From positions 1,054,001-1,118,000 of the forward strand of contig NZ_CP048788.1 in assembly GCF_012932215.1 (NCBI RefSeq): a stretch of DNA of 64,000 nt. Direction: 5' to 3'. A program made the translations under genes and the position numbers. Origin of the DNA: Roseobacter ponti (GTDB taxonomy: Bacteria > Pseudomonadota > Alphaproteobacteria > Rhodobacterales > Rhodobacteraceae). This document shows, piece after piece, positions 4,094-24,878 of this stretch (the first letter of the stretch is position 1; the number at the start of each line of letters is the position of its first letter). Under the pieces are notes generated by a model. The model saw only the letters and a program-made list of their open reading frames with translations, had not been told where the DNA came from and did not search any database.

Positions 4094-4642
4094 ATGGAAC
4101 AGAAAGTTATCAACGCGTTGCGCCGGATTAACCGGGCCGTGGCCCTGATCGTGGGGATCATGCTTTTTGCCTGCGCCGGCATTGTGTTGCTTGATATTAT
4201 TCTGCGCCGTCTGGGGTCTTCTCTGGGGGGAACGGACGAGATCAGCGGCTATGTCATGGCCATCGCCACCTCGTGGGGCATGGCGTTTACGCTCCTTGAA
4301 CTGGGTCATGTGCGCATCGACCTTTTGCGCGCCAGAGCGGGAGCGTTTGTCCGCTCGCTGTTTGACGTCTTCTCCATGGTCGTGCTCAGCGCGGTGATCG
4401 TGATGATCGCTGTTAAAGCCTGGCCTGTGGTGGAGCGTTCGCTGAGCAACGGGTCGCGGGCGAACACGCCGCTCGAAACGCCACTGGTCTGGGTGCAGAC
4501 ACCCTGGTTTGCGGGCTGGGTGTGGTTTTCTGTGGTCTCCTGCGTGATGACCCTCGTCGCGCTGTCGCTGACGCTCAAAGGGCGCCACGGCGAGGTTGAA
4601 ACGGCCGTCGGTGCTTTTGCTGAACAGGATATGCTGCAATGA
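4094..4642 (+). CDS. TRAP transporter small permease (DctQ family)
   Basis: Small inner-membrane subunit of the TRAP importer, 182 residues with four hydrophobic segments (about residues 15-40, 50-75, 90-115 and 135-160). The family's typical central part is seen as EISGYVMAIATSWGMAFTL followed by LGHVRIDLL. It starts 26 bases after the binding protein gene and its stop overlaps the start of the large permease by four bases (ATGA), so the two permease subunits are translationally coupled. Confidence 0.9.
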   Translation: MEQKVINALRRINRAVALIVGIMLFACAGIVLLDIILRRLGSSLGGTDEISGYVMAIATSWGMAFTLLELGHVRIDLLRARAGAFVRSLFDVFSMVVLSAVIVMIAVKAWPVVERSLSNGSRANTPLETPLVWVQTPWFAGWVWFSVVSCVMTLVALSLTLKGRHGEVETAVGAFAEQDMLQ

Positions 4643-5922
4643 TCGGGTCTGTCGCTGCGGGACTGCTGGGCCTGCTTACACTGTCGATCCCGGTGGGGAT
4701 TGTGCTCTTTCTGCTCGGCTTCGGGGTGGATACGTTCTTTTCGTCTTTCCCGTTGACGCGGGGCCTTGGCAACATGGTCTGGTCGGCGTCAAACTCCGCA
4801 ACGCTGATCGCGATTCCCTTCTTTGTTCTGCTCGGCGAAATACTGGTACGCAGCGGTGTGGCCACCCGTACCTATGCAGCGCTCGACCGGTGGGTCAGCT
4901 GGCTGCCCGGGGGACTTGTGCACGCTAATATCGCCACGGCCACTATGTTTTCCGCGACCTCCGGGTCATCCGTCGCCACAGCAGCGACTGTTGCGACTGT
5001 CGCGATGCCGCAGGCGGAAAAACTGGGATATGATCCGCGGCTCTTTTCCGGCGCCATTGCGGCCGGCGGCACGCTCGGGATTATGATCCCGCCGTCTATT
5101 AACCTCATCGTTTATGGCTTTCTGACGCAGTCCTCGATCCCGCAGCTATTCCTCGCGGGCCTGTTGCCCGGCCTTGGCCTCGCCCTCGCGTTCATGGTGA
5201 TTACTGTTCTGCTGTGCATGCTCAGGCCGTCGCTGGGCGGAGTGCGCCGCACCTTTCCGCTGGCGCAGATGATGCGGGCGCTGGTCGATCTTGTTCCGAT
5301 CCTGCTGCTCTTCGGCCTGATCGTCGGTTCGATTTACAAAGGCTGGGCCACACCGACAGAAGCGGCCTCAGTGGGCGTGGCCGGCGCGCTGCTGATCGCG
5401 TTCTTTTTCGGAGGTGTGTCGTTCGGTATGCTGGGGCAAAGCGTGCTCGGGACCGTTAAAATAACTTCAATGATTATGCTGATCGTGATCGGCGCGTCAT
5501 TTCTCAATTTCACGCTCGCCTCCGCCGGGCTGGGGCGTGAGTTGACGGACTTTATGAATGGTCTCGGACTGACACCTCTGGGTACAATCATGGTGGTTGT
5601 GGTCCTCTATATCGTGCTCGGTTTTTTCATCGAGACCCTGTCGCTCATGGTGGTGACCATTCCGATTATCGTGCCGCTTGTGGTTGCGCAGGGGTATGAT
5701 CCGATCTGGTTCGGGATCCTGATGATCGTGCTGATCGAGATGGCACTGATCACGCCGCCGGTCGGGCTGAACCTCTATGTGGTCCAGGGAGCCCGTAAAT
5801 CGGGTACGTTGTCCGAGGTCATGGTGGGCACAATTCCGTATGTGGTCGCGATGCTTGTGATGGTCTTTGCGCTGATCGCCTTTCCGTCGATCGCATTGTT
5901 TCTGCCGCAGGCATTGCAATAA
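4639..5922 (+). CDS. TRAP transporter large permease (DctM family)
   Basis: Large membrane subunit, 427 residues and about twelve transmembrane segments, which carries substrate coupled to sodium entry. Family signatures are visible: FSATSGSSVATAATVATVAMP near residue 105, GTLGIMIPPSINLIVYG near 150, and the late helix VLIEMALITPPVGLNLYVVQ near 370. The ATGA overlap with the small permease sets the start. It is the last gene of the operon; I see no clear terminator before the convergent sensor kinase gene. Confidence 0.93.
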   Translation: MIGSVAAGLLGLLTLSIPVGIVLFLLGFGVDTFFSSFPLTRGLGNMVWSASNSATLIAIPFFVLLGEILVRSGVATRTYAALDRWVSWLPGGLVHANIATATMFSATSGSSVATAATVATVAMPQAEKLGYDPRLFSGAIAAGGTLGIMIPPSINLIVYGFLTQSSIPQLFLAGLLPGLGLALAFMVITVLLCMLRPSLGGVRRTFPLAQMMRALVDLVPILLLFGLIVGSIYKGWATPTEAASVGVAGALLIAFFFGGVSFGMLGQSVLGTVKITSMIMLIVIGASFLNFTLASAGLGRELTDFMNGLGLTPLGTIMVVVVLYIVLGFFIETLSLMVVTIPIIVPLVVAQGYDPIWFGILMIVLIEMALITPPVGLNLYVVQGARKSGTLSEVMVGTIPYVVAMLVMVFALIAFPSIALFLPQALQ

Positions 5923-6168: not shown

Positions 6169-8511
6169 TCACGCAGCCTGTTGATTGCCTGTATGCGTTT
6201 GTACCGGTGGTTTTGGCCACTCCACAAAAAAACGACACCCGTTACCCGGCGAAGATTCCAGCGAAATACGTCCCCCGGCGAGCGTGACGGTTTTCTGAAC
6301 AATCGCGAGCCCCATGCCGCTGCCCTCCACTTCATCGCGTGGTCTGAGTGTTTGAAACATCCCGAAAATGCGCTCGTGATATCTCGGGTCAATGCCTGGA
6401 CCGTCGTCTTCCACGCAAAAAAGATGCGCCTCACCTTTTTCCCTGACTGACAGTCGGATGGTGCCACAGGGCTTCTCCGCGTGCTTCACGGAATTTCGCA
6501 CAAGGTTGAGAAGAACCGTCAGCAGCGGCGTTGCGTTGACATGCACACTATCGAGGCTCTGGTCCAGTATCACGGTGAAGCTTTCCGGCACGGCAGCAAG
6601 ATCAATCACCTCAGTCGCCAGTTGCCTGCCGGAGACAAGGCGCAATCCGGTTTCGTTGCGATCGATCCTTGCGTGCTCCAGCAGATCGTGAAGCAGCATC
6701 GACATGCGGCTCACCCGGTTGCGCAGCAGATCGAAACTTTCACGGGATTCGTCGGTCAGTACCGGGCCCAGATCTTCTTCAATCCACTGCGACGTCTGCT
6801 CGATGGCAAGCAGTGGCGCCTTCAGATCGTGAGACGCGATATAGGCAAATGCATCCAGCTCGCTGTTGGAACGTGCGAGATCCGCATTGGTGATTTCAAG
6901 CTGCGCCACAAGTTCTTTTGCTTTGCGCGTGTGAGCCATCTCGATTTCGACAAGGCGCTGGTTCTGCGCTGCATCCCGCTGGTGCAGCAATCTGGCCCGG
7001 TGCTGAAGTGCTGCGTAGGCGCCAAGCACCAGCAGACCCGCAAGAGTCGCGATGGCGATCTGTGAGATCCGCTGATCGGAAATCAGCGGTTTTGGTCCGA
7101 ACCATTCCAGCTGCAGGTCACGGTATTCATCGGACGCAAGATACCCGGGTATCACGACGTTCAGTCTCTCGCGCACGTCACCAAGTCCAAAGCGGAGCGC
7201 CGGTGCGCGCTGCCCGGAGAAAAGCGGGGGTCGGACTTCCTGCGTCACACCCTCGAGGCCACCTTCTCTGGCGGCGGTCCGCAGGACGCTGGCGATGTTG
7301 ACTGCGGCACGAATTTCACCTGCCGCCAGCGCACCCATCATGCCGGGGACGTCTGAAAAAATCACAAGATCAATGCCTTCTGTGGCTTCCAGCCTGCGCC
7401 GGGCGATATTGACCTCTACTGCTCCGACCCGTTCGCCGGCCAGATCCTCCAGCGACTGCGGCCGGAAGACGTCATCCGCCCTGACGAATGCCGAGAGGGT
7501 GTATTCGCTCGTTGGCAGTGCAAAATCCATCCGGCGTGCGCGTTCAGGCGTCACACCAGCCTGAGGAAGGATGTCGTAGGTTCCGGCGCGGGGACCGGCG
7601 CCAAAGGCGTCGCTGGTGATCGGGACAAAGCGCAGCGAGAGACCGGCACGTTCTCCCAGAGCACGCAGCGCTTCAACGGAAAACCCGGTAAGGGTGCCGT
7701 TTTCTCTGATCACCTGAAAGGGCGGAAAATGGGTCACGCCGACGGTCAGCAGATCCGGTGCCCCTGAGGTTGGTACCAGCCCCCACTGCTGTCGCAGAAA
7801 TTCAAGCTCACCCGACGCGTTGAGGTCAGACAGTGCGGCATTTATAAGGGGCATGAGTTCTGCCCGGGAGCCATGCAGCGCAACAGCGCGGTCAAAGGTC
7901 TGAAGGGGCCCGTTGACGGAAGCGACCCTGTGGTCAATCCGTTTCAGGCGCAGATTGTGGAAAAACGGATCGCCGATCACAACCAGTGCATCCGTCAGTC
8001 CGGCGAGCAGCGCATGCAGACCATCAGGGCCGCTTTCATGAGGGATAATGTGGTGGCCGGCGAGCTTGTCGCGGGCAGTGAAGGTCATCCGCCGGCTTTC
8101 AATCACACCTATGCGTTTTACACCGCCGTCATCCAGGTCGAAGCCTGCGCGGTCTTCGGTCCGCACGACCAGGTAATGTGCGGATTGCGCGACAGGCTCA
8201 GAATATATGTTCGTCGCACTGAGAATACCGAGACGGGTGACACCCGCAAGCATTTGGACTTCGCCATTCGCCTGGGCACTGATCGCATCCCACATAGTGG
8301 CATAGCGCACAAACTCTATATCAAGACCCGCACGGTCGGCAATTCGGGTGGCCAGATTCCCGAAAAATCCGTCAGGGGTGTCGGTTCCTGTTTCCTCATA
8401 AAGACTGGGTACAGGGGCCCAGCCCACAAAGACCGCTTCGGCCTGCGCGGAAAGCCCGGCGAAGGCTGCGCAAATGGCAAAGGTGACCTGGCGAAGGGTC
8501 GGAAATGGCAT
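6169..8511 (-). CDS. Sensor histidine kinase with two tandem periplasmic solute-binding domains
   Basis: A 780-residue hybrid-free kinase of the BvgS/EvgS sensory type. After a signal sequence come two SBP_bac_3 Venus-flytrap domains (about 25-245 and 255-475), one membrane segment (IAIATLAGLLVLGAYAAL), a coiled linker, a HisKA domain with the phospho-accepting histidine in YIASHDLKAPL (near residue 558), and an ATPase domain with the N box (LLNLVRNSVKHA), G1 (VEDDGPGID), F (IFGMFQTL) and G2 (GSGMGLAIVQK) motifs. There is no PAS, receiver or Hpt domain, unlike BvgS, and no response regulator lies in the window. I chose ATG 8511 over GTG 8520 because an AAGAG stretch sits upstream. It probably senses an amino acid or organic acid. 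Confidence 0.9.
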   Translation of the reverse strand: MPFPTLRQVTFAICAAFAGLSAQAEAVFVGWAPVPSLYEETGTDTPDGFFGNLATRIADRAGLDIEFVRYATMWDAISAQANGEVQMLAGVTRLGILSATNIYSEPVAQSAHYLVVRTEDRAGFDLDDGGVKRIGVIESRRMTFTARDKLAGHHIIPHESGPDGLHALLAGLTDALVVIGDPFFHNLRLKRIDHRVASVNGPLQTFDRAVALHGSRAELMPLINAALSDLNASGELEFLRQQWGLVPTSGAPDLLTVGVTHFPPFQVIRENGTLTGFSVEALRALGERAGLSLRFVPITSDAFGAGPRAGTYDILPQAGVTPERARRMDFALPTSEYTLSAFVRADDVFRPQSLEDLAGERVGAVEVNIARRRLEATEGIDLVIFSDVPGMMGALAAGEIRAAVNIASVLRTAAREGGLEGVTQEVRPPLFSGQRAPALRFGLGDVRERLNVVIPGYLASDEYRDLQLEWFGPKPLISDQRISQIAIATLAGLLVLGAYAALQHRARLLHQRDAAQNQRLVEIEMAHTRKAKELVAQLEITNADLARSNSELDAFAYIASHDLKAPLLAIEQTSQWIEEDLGPVLTDESRESFDLLRNRVSRMSMLLHDLLEHARIDRNETGLRLVSGRQLATEVIDLAAVPESFTVILDQSLDSVHVNATPLLTVLLNLVRNSVKHAEKPCGTIRLSVREKGEAHLFCVEDDGPGIDPRYHERIFGMFQTLRPRDEVEGSGMGLAIVQKTVTLAGGRISLESSPGNGCRFFVEWPKPPVQTHTGNQQAA

Positions 8512-8739
8512 ATCGGTCACTCTTACGCGATTTACAGGTCACAGGGTGACGACTGTAGCGGCCCGTGATTGCAAAATGATTAAACCGTGCGGGACCGGTC
8601 CCGGGGGATGTCGTTTCAGGACCGCAGGCAGGTCGTGTCCGTGACGCGCCTTTCGCCACATCGGATGTGCCCGGAGTGATACAGACAAAGCTCAACATCA
8701 TCTGTAGTGCGGGACGTGAAAACGGGGCCGCGTCGTTGT

Positions 8740-8937
8740 TCAGCGCTGTAACGCAGGCTCGACAATCGGGCTTTCCGCAACGACGGTGCTGGCGCAGATG
8801 CCGGTGCCCTCGATTTCGACCCCGCTGGTCTCGCCCGGGCGCAACCAGCGGGGTGGCGTTTTCGCATGACCCACACCCGGCGCAATCAGGTCACCAGGGG
8901 TAAAGGCCTTATAGTCAAAAAAAGTGAACGCCGGGCT
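8740..8937 (-). pseudogene. 3' remnant of a fumarylacetoacetate hydrolase-family gene
   Basis: Reading the minus strand gives about 65 codons with the typical C-terminal end of the FAH family: FTPGDLIAPG, then GVGHAKTPPRWLRPGE, then VEIEGTG, and a stop at 8740. No start codon exists in this frame; it is closed by a stop at 8938-8940. Just upstream (about 8900-8998) another frame reads FGKEIKLVRQTTGKDHSPD, which may be the preceding part after a frameshift. The fragment lies downstream of, and in the same direction as, the molybdenum hydroxylase operon, so it may be the decayed last gene of that operon. An intact FAH-family gene exists at 18489-19175. Confidence 0.6.
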
Positions 8938-9126: not shown

Positions 9127-11244
9127 CTAAAGCGCTGCGGCGTGGCGCAGGATTGCATCGGCTGTAAGCGGTAACCGGGTCATCCGCATTCCTGTAGCGT
9201 CACAAAGCGCGTTCGCGATCGCCGCGATGGCTGGTCCCGGCGTGGCTTCGCCTGCACCGGCAGAAGGCTCGTGCTGCGCGTTGATAAGATCAACCGTGAT
9301 CTGCGGAACCCGGTCAAAGCGCAGTACCGGATAACTCTCCCAGTCACGCGAGAGGATGCCGTCGCGGTCCCATGTGACCTCTTCGCTGAGCGCGATGGAG
9401 GCGCCCTGGATAAAACCGCCTTCAAGCTGCGCGATCAGCCCCTCACGGTCCAGCACGCGACCGGCATCTGCCACGATCAGCACGTGTTTAAGCAGCACCT
9501 CGCCGGTATCTGCCATGTCGATATCAACGCATATCCCCACGCGGGTCATCGCGTTTTTATACTGTGCATAGGCAATGCCGCGCCCGCCGGTGTCGGGCAG
9601 GGCCGGCTGGCGGGTTATACCCTCCCGCAGGCGCTCAAGCACCGCACACCCGCGCGGATCCTGCATCTGGTTCAGCCGGTAGCGGATCGGGTCCTCTGAA
9701 GTCTGCTTTGCCAGCGTGTCCATCATGCTTTCAAGCGCGAAGATATTGGTCGTGGCCCCCAGGCAGCGGAATGCCGATGTACGATGCGGCAAACCGTGGA
9801 CGAGGTTCTTTACCAAACGCTTTTCGGGAAAGATGTAAACGGGGTCGAGATTGCGGTGCATACCACCGTGCCGGTTCATATTGGGGGTGGCCTTCGGCGC
9901 GGGCACATCACAGTCACGCAACTGGTTGGCGAGCAGACGGGCGGGGCCTGCGCGGTCGGGACCGGCGCGGGGGCGCCCGCGGTGAGTGTCGCTGAAAACC
10001 TCAGCAGAAAACGATGTGACCTGGCCGTCGGGGCCCTGTGACGCGGCCAGTTCGGTTGCCATCGCCGGGGCAAAGGGTTCCCAGGCGTGCTCGTCTTCAC
10101 GGCTCCATTTCAGCAGAACGGGTGTTCCCGCCAGTTCCAGAGCCACAAGTGCTGCTTCAAATGCCGCGTCATCCGCGCCGTTGTGCCCGTAGCAACCGGA
10201 GCCCGGCATGTGGGTGATGACAACTTTTTCCGGCGAGAGCCCCAGGCTGTCGGCGATGCTGTCGCGCAGGGGATAAATGCCCTGGCTGTGGCAGGTAATC
10301 TCCAGCACATCGTTGCGGAAAACGGCAAAGGCTGCGGAAGGTGCCAGCGCGCCGTGCAGAAAATAGGGCCGCTCGAAACGTTCGGAGTAGGTGGGGTTTT
10401 CGGGCTCTGCCGGGACGGGTTGGTCTTCCAGGGGCAGGCCTTCAACCACGGGCAGTCGCCGGATGGCGTTGTCGCGGGTCAGCACCCAAAAGACATCCTC
10501 TTCGGACAGACCGCCGTTCTGGTCCCATTCACAGGTGGCACTCAGACGGGAGGCCGCGCGCACGACCGCCCATTCGCCTTCGCCGGCGACAGCAATGAAA
10601 CTACCGCTCTGCATCACCCGCAGCCCCTCGTCGGTCAGGCGGGACAGGGTCTCAGTATCCATGGAGGCGAGCGTCGCGCGGGCATGAGGCGGCCGCACCA
10701 CGCGGGCATGCAGCATATCCGGCACATCAATATCCTGCACAAAGGTGAAACTGCCCCGGACGATATCTTCCAGCCCGCGCATCCGAGGGGCGGGAACCGT
10801 TTCGGCCGGTGCCATCGTCGTGGCCCCGGTATCCACTTCAAGGTGGCTCCAGTCTTCGGAGGCCATCAGACCCACGATACTGTGCGAGATGTTCGCGCCT
10901 TCACGCCGGAACGCGCCATTCTCCAGCGTCCATGGGCCGCGGCCTTCGGCATCGGTCAGCCGGGCCTGCAGCCAGTGGCGCAGTGTCGCCGCGGCAAGAC
11001 GCAGGGCGCGCCCGGAATGCTCCACCGAGTTGCTGCCTGAGGTAATGCCTTCGTCAGGCGAGCCGGCAGTGGTCACAGGCGCAACGCGGATCTCATCAGG
11101 TGGGAGCGTCAGCTCTTCGGCGACGACCTGGGCGAGGGCGGTGGAAATCCGCTGGCCGATATCGACCTTGCCGGTGTGCAGCGTAACGGCTTTCCCGTCG
11201 CTTTGCAGCCAATGGCGGACCAGGGGGAAGGCCGCGAGGCTCAT
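9127..11244 (-). CDS. Molybdenum hydroxylase large (molybdopterin-binding) subunit, isoquinoline 1-oxidoreductase beta-like
   Basis: Catalytic subunit of a xanthine oxidase-family hydroxylase that inserts water-derived oxygen into a carbon next to a ring nitrogen or an aldehyde carbon. The N terminus (VDIGQRISTALAQVVAEEL, then PDEGITSGSNSVEHSG) is the IorB/NicB pattern, with FRCLGATTNIFALESMMD near residue 540, GGFIQGASIALSEE near 615 for cofactor binding, and the conserved catalytic glutamate in GAGEATPGPA near 663. 705 residues, without the cytochrome c extension of NicB and without a Tat signal. The ATG at 11244 overlaps the stop of the iron-sulfur subunit gene (ATGA). Substrate unknown; N-heteroaromatic compounds are the family norm. 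Confidence 0.85.
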   Translation of the reverse strand: MSLAAFPLVRHWLQSDGKAVTLHTGKVDIGQRISTALAQVVAEELTLPPDEIRVAPVTTAGSPDEGITSGSNSVEHSGRALRLAAATLRHWLQARLTDAEGRGPWTLENGAFRREGANISHSIVGLMASEDWSHLEVDTGATTMAPAETVPAPRMRGLEDIVRGSFTFVQDIDVPDMLHARVVRPPHARATLASMDTETLSRLTDEGLRVMQSGSFIAVAGEGEWAVVRAASRLSATCEWDQNGGLSEEDVFWVLTRDNAIRRLPVVEGLPLEDQPVPAEPENPTYSERFERPYFLHGALAPSAAFAVFRNDVLEITCHSQGIYPLRDSIADSLGLSPEKVVITHMPGSGCYGHNGADDAAFEAALVALELAGTPVLLKWSREDEHAWEPFAPAMATELAASQGPDGQVTSFSAEVFSDTHRGRPRAGPDRAGPARLLANQLRDCDVPAPKATPNMNRHGGMHRNLDPVYIFPEKRLVKNLVHGLPHRTSAFRCLGATTNIFALESMMDTLAKQTSEDPIRYRLNQMQDPRGCAVLERLREGITRQPALPDTGGRGIAYAQYKNAMTRVGICVDIDMADTGEVLLKHVLIVADAGRVLDREGLIAQLEGGFIQGASIALSEEVTWDRDGILSRDWESYPVLRFDRVPQITVDLINAQHEPSAGAGEATPGPAIAAIANALCDATGMRMTRLPLTADAILRHAAAL

Positions 11245-11699
11245 GACCGCCCGGCGGCCGTCTCGACGGCTTTCAGAATGCGCGGGTGGGAGCCGCAGCG
11301 GCACAGATGCGGGGCAAGCGCGGTGCGGGTTTTCTCGGGATCAGGGGAGGGCGTCTCTTCCAGCAGGGCGGTGACGGCGACCACCAGCCCTGCCGTGCAA
11401 TACCCGCACTGGGCCGCACTCTCGGTGACAAAAGCCTCCTGCACGCGTTTACCGGTCGGCGTGGCGCCAAGCCCTTCGATGGTTGTGATCTCCTGACCCT
11501 CAAAGGTGCCGGCGGGCGACACACAGCTCAGCCGCACCCCGCCATCGACCAGCACCGCACAGGCGCCGCACTGCTCCAGGCCGCAGCCCAGTTTCGTGCC
11601 CCTGAGTTTCAGCGTATCGCGCAGAACGTAGATCAGCGGCGTGTCGGGATCATCCTCAACATCATGCGTTTTACCATTGATGCGCAGACGCAGGCTCAC
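11241..11699 (-). CDS. Molybdenum hydroxylase small subunit with two [2Fe-2S] clusters
   Basis: Electron-transfer subunit of 152 residues, paired with the molybdopterin subunit that follows. The plant-type ferredoxin cluster ligands are in CGLEQCGACAVLVDG plus the cysteine at LSC; the second, all-helical cluster domain has QCGYCTAG and LCRCGSHPRI. Both are complete. The gene overlaps its upstream neighbour (OsmC) and downstream neighbour by four bases each. No FAD-binding medium subunit is encoded nearby, which is the two-subunit architecture of isoquinoline and nicotinate dehydrogenases, enzymes that pass electrons to a cytochrome rather than to NAD or oxygen. Confidence 0.93.
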   Translation of the reverse strand: MSLRLRINGKTHDVEDDPDTPLIYVLRDTLKLRGTKLGCGLEQCGACAVLVDGGVRLSCVSPAGTFEGQEITTIEGLGATPTGKRVQEAFVTESAAQCGYCTAGLVVAVTALLEETPSPDPEKTRTALAPHLCRCGSHPRILKAVETAAGRS

Positions 11700-12181
11700 G
11701 AGGTCACGCGCTCCCAGTTGACGATGACCTCCACATCAGCCGAGCGGAAAAGGTTCATCACCGGGCAGCGGTATTCGACGTTTTTGATCAGACGGTCGAA
11801 ACGATCCTGCGTTTCATCGGTATGCACGCGGATATTGAGTTTAACCCAGTTGAAATACGGCCTGACGCCCTGGACCCCGCGCGAGCCGCGCTGGTCCACT
11901 TCGCCCTCACCGTCCATATCGACAGCCGTATAATCGAACGACATTGCCTCGGCGCAGCGGTTGATGATCACCCCTTCACAGCCCATCAGCGAGCTGAGCG
12001 CCATTTCCAGCGGGGTCGGGCCTGTATCTGTCTCTTTCTCATCAGTGATCAGCACATGATTGCGCACCATCACTACAGTGCGCGGGCGCGCCTCGTTGCG
12101 CGCGCTGACCTTGCGGATGCCGATGGCTTTCTTGTTGGGATCAACGCTCGGGGCGAGAAGATCAGGGTCCTGCGTGTTCAT
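11696..12181 (-). CDS. OsmC family protein
   Basis: OsmC/Ohr-fold protein of 161 residues. Characterised relatives are dimeric thiol peroxidases that reduce organic hydroperoxides; both active-site cysteines are present, Cys68 in SSLMGCEGVI and Cys139 in EYRCPVMN, so peroxidase chemistry is possible. The stretch TGPTPLEMALSSLMGCEG is the family hallmark. It sits inside a chain of overlapping genes between the LVIVD protein and the molybdenum hydroxylase, so its role is probably tied to that enzyme (for example removing reactive by-products) rather than general stress; that link is inference from position. Confidence 0.9.
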   Translation of the reverse strand: MNTQDPDLLAPSVDPNKKAIGIRKVSARNEARPRTVVMVRNHVLITDEKETDTGPTPLEMALSSLMGCEGVIINRCAEAMSFDYTAVDMDGEGEVDQRGSRGVQGVRPYFNWVKLNIRVHTDETQDRFDRLIKNVEYRCPVMNLFRSADVEVIVNWERVTS

Positions 12182-13458
12182 AGTGTCATCTCCAGTATTT
12201 CGAGGCCATTGTTACGGTCGAGCAGGTAGATCAGGCCGTTTTCGCCCACATCGACATCGTTTGACTGCGGTGGTGTGCCATCACTGCCGACAGGGGGCGT
12301 GTACCAGGCCACCTCCTCGGGCAGTTTCGGGTTCGCCACATCCAGCACCCGCAGGCCACCGGCAAACCAGGTGGCATAAATGAGCGTAGTATCGAGTTTC
12401 TCGCGGAACTGATGGCCGCCGAAGCGCGCCCCGGGCTGGCCGATATAAGGACAGGCGCGCTCGGTCAGATCCCAGGCCGCGACGGGCTCCATATTCTCAA
12501 GATCGGTAACGTCCATAATCCAGATAAAACCGTGCAGCTGGCCGGGTTTGTGATCGTGCTCTTCATCTATGGCGATGGCATAGCGGCGCCCGTCAATGAG
12601 GTTTTCCAGCGGCATGACGGTGTGGGTGGGCTCAGGGATAGCTTTGGGATAGACGTAGCTGCCTTTGACCGCCGGGATGGTACCGGAGGCCAGATCGCTG
12701 GCATCAAGCACGCGGTAGCCTGCGTGCCAGACCGCGGCCCAGAGCTCATCACCACAGCGCATGGCATGATGCAGCCGGACGCCGTAGCCTTCCCAGGTGG
12801 GCGTCTCACCGCCCGCCAGATGCTGTCCTGGCATATGCCAGCGGTTCACTTCGGTGGGGTTCGACGGATCCGAAAGGTCATAGACCACGAGGATATTGCC
12901 GACATAGCCCTCCATCTCGGTCGAGATATAAGCGTAGTTTTCATCCATATCAAAGCGGTGCACGCCAAAGCCATGGGTACGGACATAGGCGAGCTCTCTG
13001 GGTGCGGACCTGTCACTGATGTCCCAGACCCGGAAGCCGCCGCCGTCGTAGCCCCGGGCTAGTGCCGCTTCGAGATCCGGGATATCACTTTCTTTGACGC
13101 CGAGTGCTTCCGCGATCTGAGCGTCCGTTGCGCCGGCTCCGAGCTGGTCGCGAAGGCCGGCGATTTTCTCACCCTTGCGCAGAAAATGGCGCCGGTCCTG
13201 TTCGACGTTGGTAATCATGATGTCGCCCGCGACCCTGACCTTATGGGTATGGGAGTATTCATCCGGCGGCGCCACATGTGCCGTGACACGCGGATCTGAC
13301 GGATCTGACACATCAATGATCGAGGTGCCCATCGGTGGCTTCATGTGACCGACATAGGCATAGTTGCCCTGCACCACGACCTGGCCACCACCGGCGATGT
13401 CCAGATGGCCGAGCCTGCGGATGTTGCGGGCCAGTTCAAATTCGATTTCCTGCTTCAT
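12178..13458 (-). CDS. LVIVD-repeat protein (predicted beta-propeller)
   Basis: A 426-residue protein built of repeats with the LVIVD pattern: hydrophobic strand, then D-(V/L)-S-D/N-P (TSIIDVSDPSDP, FRVWDISDRSAP, LVVYDLSDPSNP, IWIMDVTDLENM, LRVLDVANPKLP, GLEILEMTL). Such repeats are thought to form a beta-propeller. No signal peptide is visible, so it is predicted cytoplasmic. Histidine-rich segments (VRLHHAMRCGDE, EEHDHKPGQLHG) could bind a metal. Function of the family is unknown; propellers often bind ligands or hydrolyse lactones. Start and stop overlap the flanking tctA and osmC genes by four bases, so it belongs to the transport-hydroxylase operon. Confidence 0.85.
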   Translation of the reverse strand: MKQEIEFELARNIRRLGHLDIAGGGQVVVQGNYAYVGHMKPPMGTSIIDVSDPSDPRVTAHVAPPDEYSHTHKVRVAGDIMITNVEQDRRHFLRKGEKIAGLRDQLGAGATDAQIAEALGVKESDIPDLEAALARGYDGGGFRVWDISDRSAPRELAYVRTHGFGVHRFDMDENYAYISTEMEGYVGNILVVYDLSDPSNPTEVNRWHMPGQHLAGGETPTWEGYGVRLHHAMRCGDELWAAVWHAGYRVLDASDLASGTIPAVKGSYVYPKAIPEPTHTVMPLENLIDGRRYAIAIDEEHDHKPGQLHGFIWIMDVTDLENMEPVAAWDLTERACPYIGQPGARFGGHQFREKLDTTLIYATWFAGGLRVLDVANPKLPEEVAWYTPPVGSDGTPPQSNDVDVGENGLIYLLDRNNGLEILEMTL

Positions 13459-14969
13459 TGTGTCACGATCTCCCGGCGTTTACGTCGCATTTCAAACCAG
13501 ATGGGCAGCACGATCGACAGGACGAGGCAGACCCATAGCACATTGCCCAGTGTGGACGAGAAGAGCACCATGATGTCGCCGTCGGACTTCTTGAGAGACC
13601 ACAGGAAATAGCGCTCCAGCAGTGGCCCGAGAATGACCCCGATCAGAATGGCCGCCACGTGATAGCCGGTGCGGCGCGCGACATAGCCCAGCACGCCGAA
13701 GGCGAGGGCGAGGTACATATCGAACATGTACTCGCGCGGCACGAAAGCGCCGACCAGTGTGAAGGAAATGATCATCGGTGCGAGGTAAATCGTCGGCACT
13801 GTGGTCACCCGGCTCATGTAGCGGCTGAGCGGCAGGATGGTGAACATCATAAACAGATAGCTGACCGCCATCGCCATAAACATGCCATAGCCGACCTTCG
13901 GGTTGTTCTCGAAAAGCGAGGGGCCGAAGCTCACACCGTGAAACTGCATCACCACGAGCATGATCGCCGCCGTCGCACCGCCCGGAATGCCCAGCACCAG
14001 CAGTGGTACGAGTGTGCCGGAAGTCACGCCGTTGTTGGCGCTTTCGGGCGCGATCAGACCCTCGGGGTGACCTGTGCCGTAGGCCTCGGGCGTTTTAGAA
14101 AAAGAGCGTGACTGCTGATAGGCGACAAAGCTCGCAATGGAAGCGCCGGCACCCGGGATCACTCCGATGATCAGACCGATCACGCTCGTCCAGGCGATAT
14201 GCCACCAGCGTTTCAGCGCGATGGAGGCCCCCTCAAACGTGGCGTGCCAGCTCGGGGTTGCCATGGCCTTGCGGGCATCGTCCGTGATGATCAGCCGTTT
14301 TTCGATAATCACGAAGGCCTCAGAGACGGCGAAGAGACCGACCAGAGCCGGTATGAGCGGGATGCCGTCGTAAAGCTCCAGAAACCCGAAAGTCGCGCGC
14401 GGAGTCGCATAGACGACATCGGTGCCGATGGAGCCGATCATCAGCCCCAGAAAGCCCGCGATCAGACCCTTGACCATATCCTGCGCTGCGATCGACGCGA
14501 TAAGAGAGATACCAAAGAGCATGACAACAATCATCTCGACGGAATGCATGTAAAAACCGACACGGGCGAGGATCGGCATGGTTGCAAGCGCGATGACTGT
14601 TGTCAGCAGGCCGCCCAGCGAGGAAGCCACAAAGGTCATCGCCAGTGCCTGCTGGCCACGGCCCTGTTTGGTCATCGGATAGCCGTCCAGCGGTGTGGCG
14701 GCTGCCCCTGCAGTGCCGGGGATATTGACCAGAATTGCCGGAATGCCGGCCCCCATACGGGCGGCACAGTAGAGCGAGACCATGAAGATCAGACCTGTCT
14801 CCAGATCCATCGCCAGCGTCAGGGGCATGAGAATGATGATGGTGTTGGCGGCGCTGAAGCCCGGGACACCGCCGACGATCAGACCTAAGAAAATAGTGGG
14901 AATGATCACCCACCAGTAGCTGATGGTCTGAAAGAATACTTCGACCAGAATGGTTCCTGTCTCACCCAT
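13455..14969 (-). CDS. Tripartite tricarboxylate transporter large permease (TctA family)
   Basis: Large membrane subunit of a TTT importer, 504 residues with about eleven membrane segments. Family motifs: GGVPGFSAANTIIILMPLT near residue 33, MGAGIPAILVNIPGTAGAAAT near 75 with the GYPMTKQGRG loop after it, and the duplicated half with GVIPGAGASIASF near 265. It imports a carboxylate brought by the periplasmic receptor encoded at 15552-16553. The gene overlaps tctB by eight bases upstream and the LVIVD gene by four bases downstream. Confidence 0.93.
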   Translation of the reverse strand: MGETGTILVEVFFQTISYWWVIIPTIFLGLIVGGVPGFSAANTIIILMPLTLAMDLETGLIFMVSLYCAARMGAGIPAILVNIPGTAGAAATPLDGYPMTKQGRGQQALAMTFVASSLGGLLTTVIALATMPILARVGFYMHSVEMIVVMLFGISLIASIAAQDMVKGLIAGFLGLMIGSIGTDVVYATPRATFGFLELYDGIPLIPALVGLFAVSEAFVIIEKRLIITDDARKAMATPSWHATFEGASIALKRWWHIAWTSVIGLIIGVIPGAGASIASFVAYQQSRSFSKTPEAYGTGHPEGLIAPESANNGVTSGTLVPLLVLGIPGGATAAIMLVVMQFHGVSFGPSLFENNPKVGYGMFMAMAVSYLFMMFTILPLSRYMSRVTTVPTIYLAPMIISFTLVGAFVPREYMFDMYLALAFGVLGYVARRTGYHVAAILIGVILGPLLERYFLWSLKKSDGDIMVLFSSTLGNVLWVCLVLSIVLPIWFEMRRKRREIVTQ

Positions 14970-15474
14970 TTGCCAGCACTGCCTTCATTGTCGTCTCAAA
15001 CCAGCCGCTCGGGAAACGGGTCTCAAATGCCCAGATAAAGACGGCCCAGCCGCCCAGCGACATCGCCGCAGAGATGGCGATGATCAGCCCGGGGCGTTTG
15101 CCGTGGCTGAGGATCAGCATGCTGAGCGCGAGAAACAGAAATGTGGTCAGGGTAAAGCCCAGCCGGTCGATCAGCAGGCAGTAGCCCACTGTGGTGATCA
15201 GCAGGCCGATACGGCGCGACGTGATGTCCTGCATTGAAAAGAGCGTACCAAATCCCAGAGATGCCCGACCCGACATAAGCTGTGAGATGCAGCGGACAAA
15301 GAATATCCCGCAGACCAGCAACAGAATGCCGCCGACGAGAAAGCCGCTGACCTGAGCTGTCCAGGGTGAGTTCCAGATTGAGGAAAAGAAATAGAGCGTG
15401 AAGGCAACAGCCACGATCGGAATAACCAGCTCGCCGCCGATCTGGCGGGGTGATTTATCATAGTCAGGTCGCAT
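14962..15474 (-). CDS. TTT transporter small permease (TctB family)
   Basis: Four-segment inner-membrane protein of 170 residues, second membrane component of the TTT importer. Hydrophobic segments lie at about residues 16-35, 42-62, 90-135 (two close together) and 133-152. The ATG at 15474 has a strong AAGGAGG site, so translation can initiate independently of the binding-protein gene upstream; the 77-base gap contains a GC-rich hairpin. Overlap of eight bases with tctA. Confidence 0.88.
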   Translation of the reverse strand: MRPDYDKSPRQIGGELVIPIVAVAFTLYFFSSIWNSPWTAQVSGFLVGGILLLVCGIFFVRCISQLMSGRASLGFGTLFSMQDITSRRIGLLITTVGYCLLIDRLGFTLTTFLFLALSMLILSHGKRPGLIIAISAAMSLGGWAVFIWAFETRFPSGWFETTMKAVLANG

Positions 15475-18488: not shown

Positions 18489-19175
18489 TTAAACCACCTT
18501 TACCGTCATGCTGCCGAGGCCTTCGACACTGATCTCCATTTCATCGCCCTTGACGACAGGGCCCACACCCGACGGTGTGCCGGACATGATGACGTCGCCT
18601 GCGGCAAGTTCGAAGTATTCAGAGAGGTAAGAGATCATTTCCGGCACTTTCCAGATGAGTTGGTTCAGATCGCCTTCCTGACGCAACTCCCCGTTTACTT
18701 TCAGGGTGATGGCGCCCTCATCGGGGTTGCCTACGGCCTCGACGGTGTGGATCGGACCCACCGGGGCGGAGCGCTCAAAGGCCTTGCCGATTTCCCATGG
18801 ACGGCCTGCTTTCTTCATCTCGCCCTGCAGATCACGGCGGGTCATATCAAGCGAAAGCGCGTAACCATAAACGTGATCAAGCGCGCTTTCGACGGGGATG
18901 TTCGTACCGCCGGATTTCAGCATCACCGAAAGCTCCGCCTCATGGTGCACATCAGAAGTGTGAGGCGGGTATGGAAAATTACCGCTGCCATCCAGATTGT
19001 TCGGATTTTTCTGGAAGAAGAACGGTGCCTCGCGATCCGGGTCATGGCCCATTTCAATGGCATGTGCCGCGTAATTGCGGCCGATACAATAGACGCGCCG
19101 CACGGGGAATTTGGCGTCACTGCCGGCAACTTCAAGTGCCACAACGGGCGGGGTGTCGATCACGAAATCAGTCAT
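18489..19175 (-). CDS. Fumarylacetoacetate hydrolase-family protein (fumarylpyruvate hydrolase-like)
   Basis: A 228-residue enzyme of the short FAH type. The metal-binding acidic residues are visible in HHEAELSVML (about residues 78-87) and in SLDMTRRDLQ (about 110-119), and the C terminus has GDVIMSGTPSGVGPV. Closest in pattern to fumarylpyruvate hydrolase (NagK) of the gentisate route, which splits fumarylpyruvate to fumarate and pyruvate. The ATG at 19175 has a TGGAGA site; the frame continues upstream without one. Divergent from a GntR regulator across 131 AT-rich bases, and first gene of the leftward catabolic block. Confidence 0.88.
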   Translation of the reverse strand: MTDFVIDTPPVVALEVAGSDAKFPVRRVYCIGRNYAAHAIEMGHDPDREAPFFFQKNPNNLDGSGNFPYPPHTSDVHHEAELSVMLKSGGTNIPVESALDHVYGYALSLDMTRRDLQGEMKKAGRPWEIGKAFERSAPVGPIHTVEAVGNPDEGAITLKVNGELRQEGDLNQLIWKVPEMISYLSEYFELAAGDVIMSGTPSGVGPVVKGDEMEISVEGLGSMTVKVV

Positions 19176-19192: not shown

Positions 19193-19318
19193 GGTTGCAA
19201 CAGCACAATAGCGCACCTAAAACCAATCGCAACCAATTTTTTAATTTTGCTGAAACGCTTGCCTGAACGGCGGTAAATGCCCTATAAACGCCGATATCTG
19301 ATGTGAATGATCTACCAA
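19193..19318. promoter_or_regulatory. Divergent control region with ACCAAT repeats and a GGTTGC/GCAACC dyad
   Basis: The AT-rich gap between the hydrolase gene and the GntR gene contains AACCAAT at 19221-19227 and again at 19231-19237, one helical turn apart, and ACCAAT at 19313-19318 inside the GntR leader. GGTTGC at 19193-19198 is the complement of GCAACC at 19229-19234. These are candidate operator elements for the adjacent FadR-type repressor; I see no textbook FadR-family palindrome, so the assignment is tentative. Confidence 0.35.
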
Positions 19319-20020
19319 TTAGAGGTGAAAGTGCTGATAAAGCCTGTGCAGACAGACAGAGATACCGCGCTGACCGCGCTGCGGGCATTCATTACACAGG
19401 GTGGCTATACTCCCGGAGACCGGCTGCCGTCCGAACGGGATCTGATCGAGAGCCTCAGCATGTCACGGGCGACCCTGCGCAAGGCGCTGGATGCGCTTGA
19501 GCGTGAAGGGGTGCTGTGGCGCCACGTCGGCAAGGGTACCTTTATCGCGGAGACCGATGGCAAAATCGGTGATCGTGGGCTGAATGAAATCAGTCACCAG
19601 CTGACGCCGGTCAAGATGATGCGGGCGCGGCTTGCCATTGAACCTGCGATCGCCCGGGAGGCAGCGATTAATGCCTCGGGTGAAGCTATTGTGCGCATGA
19701 AACTTATCCAGGAACGTGCCCGGGCAGCTGACTCCTGGGATGAATATGAAGTACAGGATGATAACTTCCACCGCGCTGTGGCGCAGGCCAGTGACAATAT
19801 TCTGCTTTTAGCGCTCTTTGATGAACTCAACAGCGTCCGGCGCAGCATCGCGCTGAATATCGTGGTCCGCGGCACTGACCGGCCCCCCGATGGTCACCGC
19901 AGCTTTGAGCAGCATGAAGAGATTATACGGGCGATTGACCAGCGCGAACCCGCAGCGGCCTATGACGCCATGCGTACCCACATCAAATCAGTATCCGCCA
20001 GGCTCTTCGAAGACGTCTGA
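19307..20020 (+). CDS. GntR/FadR-family transcriptional regulator
   Basis: A 237-residue regulator. The N-terminal winged helix covers GDRLPSERDLIESLSMSRAT and ALEREGVLWRHVGKGTF (about residues 34-80); the C-terminal FCD domain has the metal and ligand residues in DDNFHRAVAQASDN and QHEEIIRAIDQRE. Such proteins usually repress catabolic genes until a pathway acid binds. It is divergent from the hydrolase-decarboxylase block and followed by an acyl-CoA synthetase in the same direction, so it could control both sides. An in-frame GTG at 19331 has a better ribosome site (AGAGG) than the ATG at 19307 and may be the real start. Confidence 0.9.
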   Translation: MIYQLEVKVLIKPVQTDRDTALTALRAFITQGGYTPGDRLPSERDLIESLSMSRATLRKALDALEREGVLWRHVGKGTFIAETDGKIGDRGLNEISHQLTPVKMMRARLAIEPAIAREAAINASGEAIVRMKLIQERARAADSWDEYEVQDDNFHRAVAQASDNILLLALFDELNSVRRSIALNIVVRGTDRPPDGHRSFEQHEEIIRAIDQREPAAAYDAMRTHIKSVSARLFEDV

Positions 20021-20107
20021 AGCAGCCCTGAAGTCTTCCGCTGTCGAAGTCTGCGCGACCCGCGCTACATACCTTTGCCGATCCCCTTCTCACACGGAGA
20101 ATTTACG

Positions 20108-21643
20108 ATGACCGAAACGCTAGCAACGTTAATTGAGACACATGCAGAAGATCTGCCGGCCTTCGGTGCGCCGGACCGGGACTGGCTGAGCTATGGCGGG
20201 TTGCGCGGACTTGCCAGCAACGTTGCGGCCTCTCTGCACAGCATGGGTGTCGGGCGCGGCGACCGGGTTGCCATTGTTTTGCCGAACGGTCCTGAAATGG
20301 CGGCGGCATTTATCACCATCGCCCAGGTCGCGACGACAGCGCCGCTTAATCCGGCGTACCGTGAAGAGGAATACGATTTTTATCTGTCTGACCTGAAAGC
20401 GAAGGCGCTGGTGGTTATGGAGGGATACGACGGCCCGGCGCTGGCTGCGGCCCGCAAGGCTGACATGGCGGTGATCCGGCTCTCGGTGCCTGAAGGGGCG
20501 CCTGCGGGCGCTTTTGAACTCAGCTCTGACCGCGAGGACCGTGCGGACGAAAGCGCGCCGGGGCCGGAGGATATCGCGCTGATCCTGCACACTTCGGGCA
20601 CGACGTCCCGGCCCAAGATTGTGCCTCTGCTGCAGACCAATGTTGCCGCTTCGGCCATGCATATCAGAACCTCTCTGGATCTGACGCAGGAAGACCGGTG
20701 CATGAATGTTATGCCGCTCTTTCATATCCACGGGCTGATTGCGGCGGTCGCGGCCAGCCTCGCGGCCGGGGGATCGGTCTGGTGCGCGCCGGGCTTTGAT
20801 GCTCTGAAATTCTTTGGCTGGATGAAGGATTCAAAACCGACCTGGTACACTGCTGTGCCGACAATGCATCAGGCCATCCTGAGCCGGGCAGGGCGCAACG
20901 CGGAAACCATCGCCGAAACCCCGCTGCGGTTTTTGCGGTCCTCTTCCGCCTCGCTGCCGGCAAGTGTGATGCGCAGGCTCGAGGAAACTTTTGGTGCGCC
21001 GGTTATCGAAGGCTACGGTATGACCGAAGCCGCCCACCAGATGGCGTCTAACCCGCTTGGCAAGGGAAGACAGCGCCCGGGTGCTGTCGGCCTTGAGGCC
21101 GGTCCGAAGGTGCGTATCGCCCATGAGACCGAAGACCGGATCACCGGCGGGACAGGGGAGATTGTGATCTCTGGTCCGAATGTGACGCCGGGGTATGAGG
21201 GCAACCCGGATGCCAACGAAAAAAGCTTTTTCAGCGCCGAGGGCGCGCGCTGGTTCCGCACCGGGGATCAGGGAGCCTTTGACGAAGAAGGCTATCTGCG
21301 GCTGACCGGCAGGCTGAAAGAAATCATCAACCGCGGCGGCGAAAAGATCAGCCCGCTTGAAGTGGATGATGTGCTACTTGACCATCCGGATGTGGCTCAG
21401 GTTGTAACCTTTGCGCTACCGCATCCCAAGCTTGGCGAGGATGTCGCGGCCGCGGTCGTTCTGTCGGAAGGATCGGAGGCCACCGAAAAGGATATCCGCG
21501 CTTTCGCCGCAGAGCGTATAGCCGATTTCAAAGTGCCGCGCCGGATAATCATCATGGATGAGATCCCCAAAGGTGCGACGGGAAAGATGCAGCGCATCGG
21601 CCTTGCGGAAAAGCTGGGGCTCGTTGACGCGGCACAGAGCTGA
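20108..21643 (+). CDS. Acyl-CoA synthetase, oxalate-CoA ligase (AAE3)-like
   Basis: ANL-superfamily ligase of 511 residues that activates a carboxylate with ATP and CoA. AMP-binding motif LHTSGTTSRPKIVPL near residue 167, then MPLFHIHGLIAAVAASLA and TWYTAVPTMHQAIL, a pair characteristic of oxalyl-CoA synthetases of the plant AAE3 group, then GYGMTEAAHQM, WFRTGDQG, GRLKEIINRGGEKISPLEVD and the C-terminal catalytic lysine in GATGKMQR. The ATG at 20108 follows GGAG at good spacing. It begins 87 bases after the GntR gene, same direction. A short dicarboxylate or aromatic acid could be the substrate; oxalate is only a similarity-based suggestion. Confidence 0.85.
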   Translation: MTETLATLIETHAEDLPAFGAPDRDWLSYGGLRGLASNVAASLHSMGVGRGDRVAIVLPNGPEMAAAFITIAQVATTAPLNPAYREEEYDFYLSDLKAKALVVMEGYDGPALAAARKADMAVIRLSVPEGAPAGAFELSSDREDRADESAPGPEDIALILHTSGTTSRPKIVPLLQTNVAASAMHIRTSLDLTQEDRCMNVMPLFHIHGLIAAVAASLAAGGSVWCAPGFDALKFFGWMKDSKPTWYTAVPTMHQAILSRAGRNAETIAETPLRFLRSSSASLPASVMRRLEETFGAPVIEGYGMTEAAHQMASNPLGKGRQRPGAVGLEAGPKVRIAHETEDRITGGTGEIVISGPNVTPGYEGNPDANEKSFFSAEGARWFRTGDQGAFDEEGYLRLTGRLKEIINRGGEKISPLEVDDVLLDHPDVAQVVTFALPHPKLGEDVAAAVVLSEGSEATEKDIRAFAAERIADFKVPRRIIIMDEIPKGATGKMQRIGLAEKLGLVDAAQS

Positions 21644-21691
21644 GAGGCTGGTTAACAGGGCGGAGTGCCCGGGCAGACAAAGAGGGTGACG

Positions 21692-24370: not shown

Positions 24371-24856
24371 TCAGAGAAAGCCCGCAAAAAGAGTGCCCCG
24401 CGGCAGAACCACCTGAAACACCTCCCGGAAAATAAACCAGATCAGCAGCAGTGTCCCTGCAGTCAGAGCCAGGGTGAGAAGCGGATTTTTACGCCACAGA
24501 AACTGAAAGGAGCAAAAGAGAAAAACCGCCGAAGCGGCGATAAAACCCAGCACCGGCATCAGCAGGACATATCCCAGCACCAGTCCGGTCAGGATAATGT
24601 GGCGCGGTGTGAGAACCTCTGCAAAAAAGCCGGGCGACTGTGCCGCAGGGCCGGGCTGACGGGCTGCTGAAACCAGAATGGCAATGCCTGAGAAGACCAT
24701 CACCCCGGAAGCGAGCATCGGAAACACACCGGGTTCTGTCTTTCCCGAAAATCCGGAAATGCCGTAGGACTGCCAGAAGGCAGCTACGGAAAATACGACA
24801 ATCAGCAGAGCAAAGACGAGTTCTCCGGGCCTGCGGTGCGGCGTCTGCGTTGTCAT
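24371..24856 (-). CDS. TTT transporter small permease (TctB family), second system
   Basis: Four-segment membrane protein of 161 residues: hydrophobic stretches at about residues 12-30, 43-62, 88-122 (two) and 132-150. Start ATG is preceded by GGAGGTGA, a near-perfect ribosome site. It lies after a hairpin-bearing gap behind the binding-protein gene and directly before tctA. Confidence 0.87.
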   Translation of the reverse strand: MTTQTPHRRPGELVFALLIVVFSVAAFWQSYGISGFSGKTEPGVFPMLASGVMVFSGIAILVSAARQPGPAAQSPGFFAEVLTPRHIILTGLVLGYVLLMPVLGFIAASAVFLFCSFQFLWRKNPLLTLALTAGTLLLIWFIFREVFQVVLPRGTLFAGFL

Positions 24857-24878
24857 GGGTCACCTCCGTCAAAAGGCG

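What the first reader, a model, noticed from the sequence alone, without database searches (positions are those of the whole stretch)
9127..15474. Six-gene translationally coupled chain linking a TTT importer, LVIVD propeller, OsmC and a molybdenum hydroxylase
Seen: tctB, tctA, LVIVD, osmC, FeS subunit and Mo subunit overlap at every junction (four bases in four cases, eight in one). Known: such overlaps usually couple translation of partners. LVIVD-repeat proteins have no known function and OsmC is usually thought of as a stress protein. Inference: all six form one uptake-and-oxidation unit in which LVIVD handles ligand or lactone chemistry and OsmC removes peroxides from the hydroxylase. I know of no described system with this combination, so it is the best candidate for a new one.
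Basis: partly seen in the sequence, partly recalled or inferred. Interest (0 to 1): 0.78.

Follow-up and report, generated by a model that had tools for sequence, protein, structure and literature searches.

The report
Conserved import-and-breakdown operon with propeller enzyme
A marine bacterium carries a tightly packed, evolutionarily conserved gene set that seems to import and break down an unknown organic acid, and comparison with relatives suggests that two poorly understood proteins in it (a propeller-shaped protein and an OsmC protein) belong with the importer more than with the molybdenum enzyme.

Summary
In detail: six minus-strand genes overlap at every junction (8, 4, 4, 4, 4 bases). 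They belong to a ten-gene run that also holds tctC, a TauE permease, a 4,5-dihydroxyphthalate-decarboxylase homologue and an FAH hydrolase, with a divergent GntR regulator. Order and overlaps are conserved: LVIVD, OsmC and Mo subunit occur at high identity in the same 13 of 390 genomes of the order. LVIVD lies directly behind TctA in 31 of 44 more distant loci, while the Mo gene is found in 1 of 43; distant LVIVD genes lie behind ABC-importer genes. OsmC homologues often lie behind TTT, ABC and TRAP importers, four times next to an SMP-30 lactonase-like propeller where this operon has LVIVD. The LVIVD model is a propeller whose best solved match is the Sphingobium phosphotriesterase (binuclear metal centre); seven histidines are invariant in 99 or 100 of 100 relatives. 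I propose that LVIVD is a cytoplasmic metal-dependent hydrolase (lactone or ester) acting on the imported acid, with OsmC as thiol partner of that step; hydroxylase, decarboxylase and FAH do later breakdown. Substrate and OsmC chemistry are unknown.

The parts
9127..11244 (-). Mo subunit of a two-subunit molybdenum hydroxylase (FeS + Mo; no FAD subunit among the ten profiled operon genes)
   Evidence: MoCoBD_1 and MoCoBD_2; PDB matches to aldehyde and nicotinate dehydrogenase subunits; invariant GAGEA with E666 in 13 of 13
11241..11699 (-). [2Fe-2S] subunit, GTG start, 4-base overlap with osmC
   Evidence: Fer2 and Fer2_2; XDH small-subunit type models below their cut-offs
11696..12181 (-). 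OsmC-family protein with the usual cysteine pair (C68, C139) and a motif RG..GV.G.RPYF
   Evidence: PF02566; alignment of 12; first cysteine in 59 and second in 60 of 60 homologues (exceptions to its stricter patterns read by eye)
12178..13458 (-). LVIVD-repeat seven-bladed propeller, predicted metal-dependent hydrolase, no export signal seen
   Evidence: PF08309; AlphaFold2 model pLDDT 89; Foldseek top match 5hrm; invariant His, Glu and Asp set; N-terminus
13455..14969 (-). tctA, large permease subunit of a tripartite tricarboxylate transporter
   Evidence: PF01970, E 3.9e-125
14962..15474 (-). tctB, small permease subunit
   Evidence: PF07331
15552..16610 (-). tctC, binding protein of the importer
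   Evidence: PF03401
16637..17410 (-). TauE/SafE-type permease; found in 10 of 12 relatives
   Evidence: PF01925
17407..18438 (-). homologue of 4,5-dihydroxyphthalate decarboxylase, no export signal seen
   Evidence: 9jp7_A, E 9.4e-80; N-termini; present in 12 of 12 relatives
18489..19175 (-). FAH-family hydrolase, fumarylpyruvate/acylpyruvate hydrolase type
   Evidence: PF01557; 6j5y E 3.2e-77, 4maq E 3.5e-69
19307..20020 (+). divergent GntR/FCD regulator; a homologue in 12 of 12 relatives
   Evidence: PF00392 and PF07729
20075..21643 (+). oxalate-CoA-ligase-like enzyme, possibly part of the pathway (5' end uncertain); homologue in only 1 of the 12 relatives' fetched stretches
   Evidence: 5ie0 E 1.7e-126; directly behind Mo in L026; an acyl-CoA ligase with similar model matches in L216
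21665..22675 (+). ApbA-type 2-dehydropantoate reductase family, beside the ligase gene here and in L026

Best explanation
A patchily distributed, co-inherited operon of the window's order imports one organic (probably cyclic or enolic, multiply carboxylated) acid through TctCBA and degrades it in the cytoplasm. LVIVD is a metal-dependent seven-bladed propeller hydrolase that opens a lactone or ester of the imported compound or of an early product. OsmC works with that uptake/hydrolysis step through its cysteine pair. The FeS+Mo pair hydroxylates, the dihydroxyphthalate-decarboxylase homologue removes CO2, and FAH splits an acylpyruvate; GntR/FCD controls expression. Shown: gene content, order, overlaps, co-occurrence, fold match, invariant residues. 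Inferred: location, metal binding, hydrolysis, order of steps. Unknown: substrate, OsmC chemistry.
For: Same 13 of 390 genomes at high identity for LVIVD, OsmC and Mo; gene order in 12 of 12 relatives; overlaps. Foldseek: 5hrm chains at E 7.9e-18 and 5.6e-17, next entry 2.8e-10; LVIVD profile against PDB sequences: only the two haloalkylphosphorus hydrolase entries, E 9.5e-15 and 2.2e-14, with H349 aligned to a histidine of that enzyme in a significant stretch and H279 in a stretch that is not significant alone. H38, H72, H167, H230, H231, H279, H349, E299, D316, D401 invariant in 99 of 99 or 100 of 100 sequences and in 11 of 11 distant plasmid homologues except one H167Q. Position swap: TRAP-SMP30-OsmC in L188, L189, L190, L223 against TctA-LVIVD-OsmC here. 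Sugar-acid genes near distant LVIVD genes: denD in two plasmid loci, with otnK, four-carbon acid sugar kinase and pdxA in one.
Against: No activity, metal or substrate is known. The match to 5hrm has TM 0.64-0.66, rmsd about 7 and 17-18% identity, and generic propellers follow at E 3e-10. H279 invariance in the 80 loci is partly by construction, because one of the search patterns contains it. Genes behind LVIVD vary elsewhere (alpha/beta hydrolase, aldo/keto reductase, isocitrate-dehydrogenase-like, FGE-sulfatase-like), so one common substrate is unlikely. LVIVD and SMP-30 protein are not clearly homologous (hhalign probability 23), so the swap is a positional analogy, and two of the four SMP-30 loci come from one genus. 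OsmC homologues L220 and L221 (45 and 41%) have no TTT, TRAP or ABC gene beside them.
Confidence: 0.43

Rival explanations
1. One reading: a dedicated system in which LVIVD and OsmC serve the molybdenum hydroxylase, OsmC removing its peroxide.
For: All loci at 70% or more with enough sequence hold the Mo gene (24 of 24); OsmC carries the redox cysteine pair; two OsmC loci elsewhere (L186, L216) have a CO-dehydrogenase-like Mo subunit in the same stretch (L216 profiled; L186 read by eye).
Against: LVIVD without Mo in 42 of 43 loci below 70% identity (two of them, L087 and L095, have an FeS-subunit-like hit 7-8 kb away on the other strand); OsmC behind importers without a homologue of this Mo gene; of the best 11 of 29 weaker Mo places, none holds OsmC or LVIVD in the fetched 17-19 kb.
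Confidence: 0.13
2. LVIVD and OsmC are non-catalytic accessory factors of the importer (assembly, gating or sensing).
For: LVIVD is directly 3' of a permease or binding-protein gene across TTT and ABC systems; OsmC behind TTT, TRAP and ABC.
Against: An invariant set of His/Glu/Asp at strand starts is typical of a catalytic metal site; no export signal seen for LVIVD and OsmC; SMP-30, an enzyme family, takes the same place.
Confidence: 0.2
3. LVIVD is a metalloenzyme of another kind: isomerase, rearrangement or ring-cleaving enzyme (as recalled for the WD40-like enzyme of bacterial ascorbate catabolism and for carotenoid oxygenases).
For: Many-histidine propeller; no ring-cleaving enzyme among the ten profiled operon genes although a decarboxylase homologue and an FAH hydrolase are there.
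Against: Closest solved relative is a hydrolase.
Confidence: 0.2
4. The operon is an accidental neighbourhood kept by recent common descent.
For: The core loci are related to each other and the whole run is co-inherited (Mantel r 0.57-0.84; no housekeeping control).
Against: OsmC, LVIVD and Mo proteins differ by 17, 23 and 41% on average over 23 loci while order stays; TctA-LVIVD adjacency persists below 70% identity in records titled as several orders.
Confidence: 0.04

Closest known systems
Phosphotriesterase / haloalkylphosphorus hydrolase of Sphingobium sp. TCM1 (PDB 5hrm, 5ioj)
   Same: Propeller fold; best fold and profile match; H349 aligned to one of its histidines, H279 weakly to another. 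The title of its structure paper, seen only in a reference list, names a binuclear metal centre in a seven-bladed propeller.
   Different: 17-18% identity, rmsd about 7; flame-retardant phosphotriester substrates (passage); its gene neighbourhood was not examined.
SMP-30/gluconolactonase propellers
   Same: Occupy the place between importer permease and OsmC in TRAP operons L188, L189, L190, L223
   Different: Different family (PF08450), about 300 aa, no clear homology
OsmC/Ohr family
   Same: PF02566 with both cysteines
   Different: Own motif RG..GV.G.RPYF; importer-linked gene position; only a faint PDB match (1lql, E 0.0027)
Two-subunit molybdenum hydroxylases of the isoquinoline 1-oxidoreductase (IorAB) type (name recalled)
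   Same: FeS + Mo subunits, no FAD subunit among profiled genes; MoCo-binding stretch at the N-terminus
   Different: No cytochrome partner among the ten profiled genes; substrate unknown; no IorAB sequence was compared
Tripartite tricarboxylate transporters with catabolic operons
   Same: TctA, TctB, TctC
   Different: LVIVD gene overlapping tctA in the core loci

Membership tests
LVIVD repeat proteins (PF08309) | Score over the Pfam cut-off | tested here: met
   61.2 bits against 20.2
Sphingobium TCM1-type propeller phosphotriesterases | Seven-bladed propeller fold | tested here: met
   Model strands that I group as 7 x 4 (grouping mine); top Foldseek match 5hrm, TM 0.64-0.66, rmsd about 7
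Sphingobium TCM1-type propeller phosphotriesterases | Metal-ligand residues conserved | tested here: inconclusive
   H349 aligns to a histidine of 5hrm in a significant stretch (i-Evalue 5.7e-5), H279 to another in a stretch that is not significant alone; that these are ligands (His-389, His-475) is recalled, the paper was not held
Sphingobium TCM1-type propeller phosphotriesterases | Phosphotriester hydrolysis | not testable with these tools
   needs enzyme assay
OsmC/Ohr | OsmC domain and two redox cysteines | tested here: met
OsmC/Ohr | Hydroperoxide reduction | not testable with these tools
   needs enzyme assay
Molybdenum hydroxylases (xanthine oxidase family) | [2Fe-2S] subunit plus MoCo-binding subunit with conserved active-site Glu | tested here: met
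   (role of the Glu recalled)
IorAB-type two-subunit enzymes | Closest to IorAB among molybdenum hydroxylases | not tested
   No NCBIfam model reaches its cut-off; no IorAB sequence was compared
4,5-dihydroxyphthalate decarboxylase | Homology over nearly the full length to a solved member | tested here: met
   9jp7_A, residues 15-342 of 343, E 9.4e-80
4,5-dihydroxyphthalate decarboxylase | Acts on 4,5-dihydroxyphthalate in a phthalate pathway | not testable with these tools
   No ring dioxygenase among the 14 window proteins profiled; the rest of the window was not profiled
Tripartite tricarboxylate transporters | TctA, TctB, TctC together | tested here: met

The most novel reading that the evidence does not exclude
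Importer-linked LVIVD propellers are an unrecognised class of cytoplasmic metallo-lactonases/esterases that do the first step on freshly imported acids, and an importer-linked OsmC subfamily is their thiol-dependent partner; cells mix and match importer (TTT, TRAP, ABC), propeller (LVIVD or SMP-30) and OsmC, with the molybdenum hydroxylase as one of several downstream modules.
Probability: 0.3. Interest if true: 0.72.

Novelty: new variant of a known kind. Interest (0 to 1): 0.5.

Why it matters
The neighbourhood and residue evidence gives both a testable one tied to solute uptake, and gives a defined operon in named isolates (for example Marivita cryptomonadis, Thalassococcus profundi, Roseobacter sp. 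H9; record titles) in which to find the substrate.

Tried and rejected
Literature, seen as search listings: the combination (none), 'LVIVD' (19 papers, titles and abstract starts), LVIVD with gene clusters (none), homarine operon, dihydroxyphthalate decarboxylase (15 of 29 listed), OsmC with TTT, OsmC with TRAP and gluconolactonase, decarboxylase/IorAB/TTT in pairs. None of the listed titles describes a system of this kind; only open-licence PMC papers are covered. Of two papers I saw passages; none was read whole. Ideas dropped: homarine catabolism (nothing found). The recalled WD40-like enzyme of ascorbate catabolism as an LVIVD protein could not be checked (not among the 20 listed of 56 papers) and is kept as a rival only. 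A Pfam scan of three short fragments of the Sphingobium enzyme, to ask whether it is itself an LVIVD protein, gave no hit and is uninformative at that length. The decarboxylase-like gene as an ABC binding protein was rejected: no export signal seen and a 271-bit match to 9jp7 against 19.8 bits to SsuA. The export-signal measure is crude: it separates LVIVD, OsmC and the decarboxylase homologue (at most 1.1) from most TctC proteins (1.1-1.7), but FAH (1.1-1.6) and some FeS and Mo relatives (up to 1.6) overlap with TctC, so I make no claim on those. The Mantel test shows co-inheritance but has no housekeeping control. Seven of the 12 core loci are the same contigs as loci, and L215 is L100, so the sets are not independent. 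In one search starts were chosen, within 36 bases of the expected place, to come closest to a 4-base overlap, which favours overlaps. L218 could not be read (antisense gene calls).
Full report
Observation. The six genes and their overlaps are as described (translations): tctB/tctA 8 bases, the other four junctions 4 bases, if the Mo gene starts at the ATG at 11244. The ORF list offers a GTG at 11304; in two of 12 relatives a stop lies between that place and the ATG, in ten it does not. The genes continue upstream on the same strand: tctC, TauE, a decarboxylase homologue (4-base overlap with TauE) and FAH, with a divergent GntR/FCD regulator. Four-base overlaps are not rare: 31 of 228 same-strand pairs in the outer parts of relative loci and 4 of 17 in the window outside the operon, so four in one chain is unusual but not proof. 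Conservation is stronger evidence.

Conservation. P0004 (LVIVD) matched 22 of 390 genomes of the order; 13, the own genome included, match at 74% or more. OsmC at 72% or more occurs in 13 of the same 390 and Mo at 52% or more in 13; the three lists name the same 13 genomes. In the 12 others, decarboxylase homologue, TctC, TctB, TctA, LVIVD, OsmC, FeS and Mo are all present in this order, with TauE in 10 of 12, a GntR homologue in 12 of 12 and FAH within the fetched 18-20 kb in 8 of 12. Overlaps are kept: tctB/tctA 8 bases in 11 of 12, tctA/LVIVD 4 in 11, LVIVD/OsmC 4 in 12, OsmC/FeS 4 in 8, FeS/Mo 4 in 12 (the choice of start codons leans towards overlaps). In the draw, 3 of 9 genomes of the window's own genus match, so the unit is patchy. 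Distances between the genes correlate across 21-23 loci (r 0.57-0.84, none of 999 permutations as high), without a housekeeping control.

Wider search. Seven of them are contigs already seen. For loci at 70% or more (27), TctA is directly 5' (same strand, within 400 bases) in 24 of 24 with enough sequence, OsmC directly 3' in 24 of 25 (the exception is a metagenome contig, L056; in L049 OsmC is cut short), and Mo present in 24 of 24. For loci below 70% (53), TctA is directly 5' in 31 of 44, OsmC directly 3' in 6 of 49 and Mo in 1 of 43; one of those OsmC loci and the Mo locus is L066, a core locus at just under 70%. L077 and L081 have OsmC a gene or more away, and L087 and L095 have an FeS-subunit-like hit on the other strand 7-8 kb away. 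By eye, 10 of the 13 loci without adjacent TctA still have a TctA in the stretch. On plasmids, 69 records hold LVIVD homologues; I looked at 11, of which 10 are annotated. In 7 of 10 the gene directly 5' on the same strand is a TctA permease or a binding protein; in the other 3 importer genes lie beside it on the other side or one or two genes away. The window's genome has 5 full-length TctA genes, so chance adjacency is small.

OsmC. Six genomes of the order have an OsmC homologue at 47-52% identity. All six lie next to importer genes, and none has LVIVD or a homologue of this Mo gene (tblastn E 1e-4) in the 12-18 kb fetched: TctC-TctA/B fusion (L185, L187), ABC (L186), TRAP plus an SMP-30 propeller (L188, L189, L190) (L187, L188 and L190 profiled, the others read from translations). 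L186 does end in what reads by eye as a CO-dehydrogenase-type Mo subunit on the other strand. Of nine further loci from the class, five adjoin importer genes: L215 (TctA-LVIVD; the same contig as L100), L216 (TctCBA, with one opposite-strand ORF between), L217 and L219 (ABC), L223 (TRAP-SMP30). L222 has a convergent binding-protein-like gene, L220 and L221 have no TTT, TRAP or ABC gene beside OsmC, L218 could not be read. L216 has a CO-dehydrogenase-like Mo subunit nearby together with an acyl-CoA ligase and an ApbA-like gene. The first cysteine is kept in 59 and the second in 60 of 60 sequences; the script's stricter patterns scored 49 and 59, and the exceptions were read by eye.

Hydroxylase. 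I fetched the best 11 of 29 Mo places below the core (33-37% identity). All 11 have the FeS gene and none has LVIVD or OsmC; several have TRAP genes, two with a class II aldolase gene between importer and FeS (L192 profiled, L196 by similarity). So the Mo pair is also a movable module.

LVIVD structure. AlphaFold2 on 21 sequences gives mean pLDDT 89.2 and pTM 0.88. I group its strands into seven four-stranded blades closed by the N-terminal strand. Foldseek's best matches are two chains of the Sphingobium phosphotriesterase (5hrm, E 7.9e-18 and 5.6e-17; TM 0.64-0.66, rmsd about 7), then generic propellers from 2.8e-10. The sequence profile finds only this enzyme in the PDB. H349 aligns with H388 of the 5hrm chain in a significant stretch (i-Evalue 5.7e-5); H279 aligns with H302 in a stretch that is not significant alone. 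5ioj numbers 87 higher, which would make them His-475 and His-389, metal ligands as I recall them (not read). H38, H72, H167, H230, H231, H279, H349, E299, D316 and D401 are invariant in 99 of 99 or 100 of 100 sequences (at least seven contigs counted twice; H279 lies in one of the search patterns) and in 11 of 11 distant plasmid homologues but for one H167Q. H72, H167, H230/H231, H279 and H349 fall in the innermost strand of successive blades, mostly at its start, as a metal site in the central channel would need; the coordinates themselves were not available to me. LVIVD, OsmC and the decarboxylase homologue show no export signal by a crude hydrophobicity measure, which does not settle the matter for FeS and Mo.

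Interpretation. I read its core logic as uptake plus propeller plus OsmC; the hydroxylase, decarboxylase and FAH are downstream modules in this lineage. Lactone or ester hydrolysis by LVIVD is the best guess from the fold match, the positional exchange with SMP-30 propellers, and the sugar-acid genes beside two distant LVIVD genes. Peroxide removal by OsmC for the hydroxylase fits poorly, as OsmC is found without it. The substrate is open: TTT import, a dihydroxyphthalate-decarboxylase homologue, an acylpyruvate-type FAH hydrolase and an oxalate-CoA-ligase-like neighbour (that neighbour is in only 1 of 12 relatives' stretches) point to a cyclic multi-carboxylate, no further.

Verdict. Confirmed observation, partly supported interpretation, new variant of a known kind. 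I found no description of this combination in the open-licence papers searched, seen as listings.

Noticed in passing
window 8776-8904 (-): Possible remnant of the C-terminus of a second, longer FAH-type hydrolase between the Mo gene and the histidine kinase gene (tblastn E about 1e-5 to 1e-4 against this 626-base stretch alone; not found at E 1e-3 in the whole window); such a second FAH gene is intact in several other LVIVD loci.
   Followed up: partly
window 6169-8520 (-): Histidine kinase whose N-terminus carries two stretches of the family-3 solute-binding domain, beside TRAP-type genes (the large permease gene is at 4639-5922).
   Followed up: no
window 22868-25921 (-): A second TctA (32% identical) with two further genes of the sizes of a TctB and a TctC, probably a second TTT importer.
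   Followed up: no
window 20075-22675 (+): Oxalate-CoA-ligase-like and ApbA genes behind the GntR gene; the same pair lies behind Mo in L026, and a similar pair by a TctCBA-OsmC locus in L216.
   Followed up: partly
L188 4295-9235, L189, L190, L223: TRAP importer, SMP-30 propeller and OsmC in one run, with a 4-base SMP-30/OsmC overlap in L188 and L189, which come from one genus.
   Followed up: partly
L228 (Pararhizobium plasmid), L235 (Martelella plasmid): Distant LVIVD gene behind a sugar ABC importer near D-erythronate dehydrogenase and, in L228, 3-oxo-tetronate kinase, four-carbon acid sugar kinase and PdxA.
   Followed up: no
L056 / L057: One metagenome-assembled genome has two contigs of this operon, one without the OsmC gene between LVIVD and FeS.
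   Followed up: no
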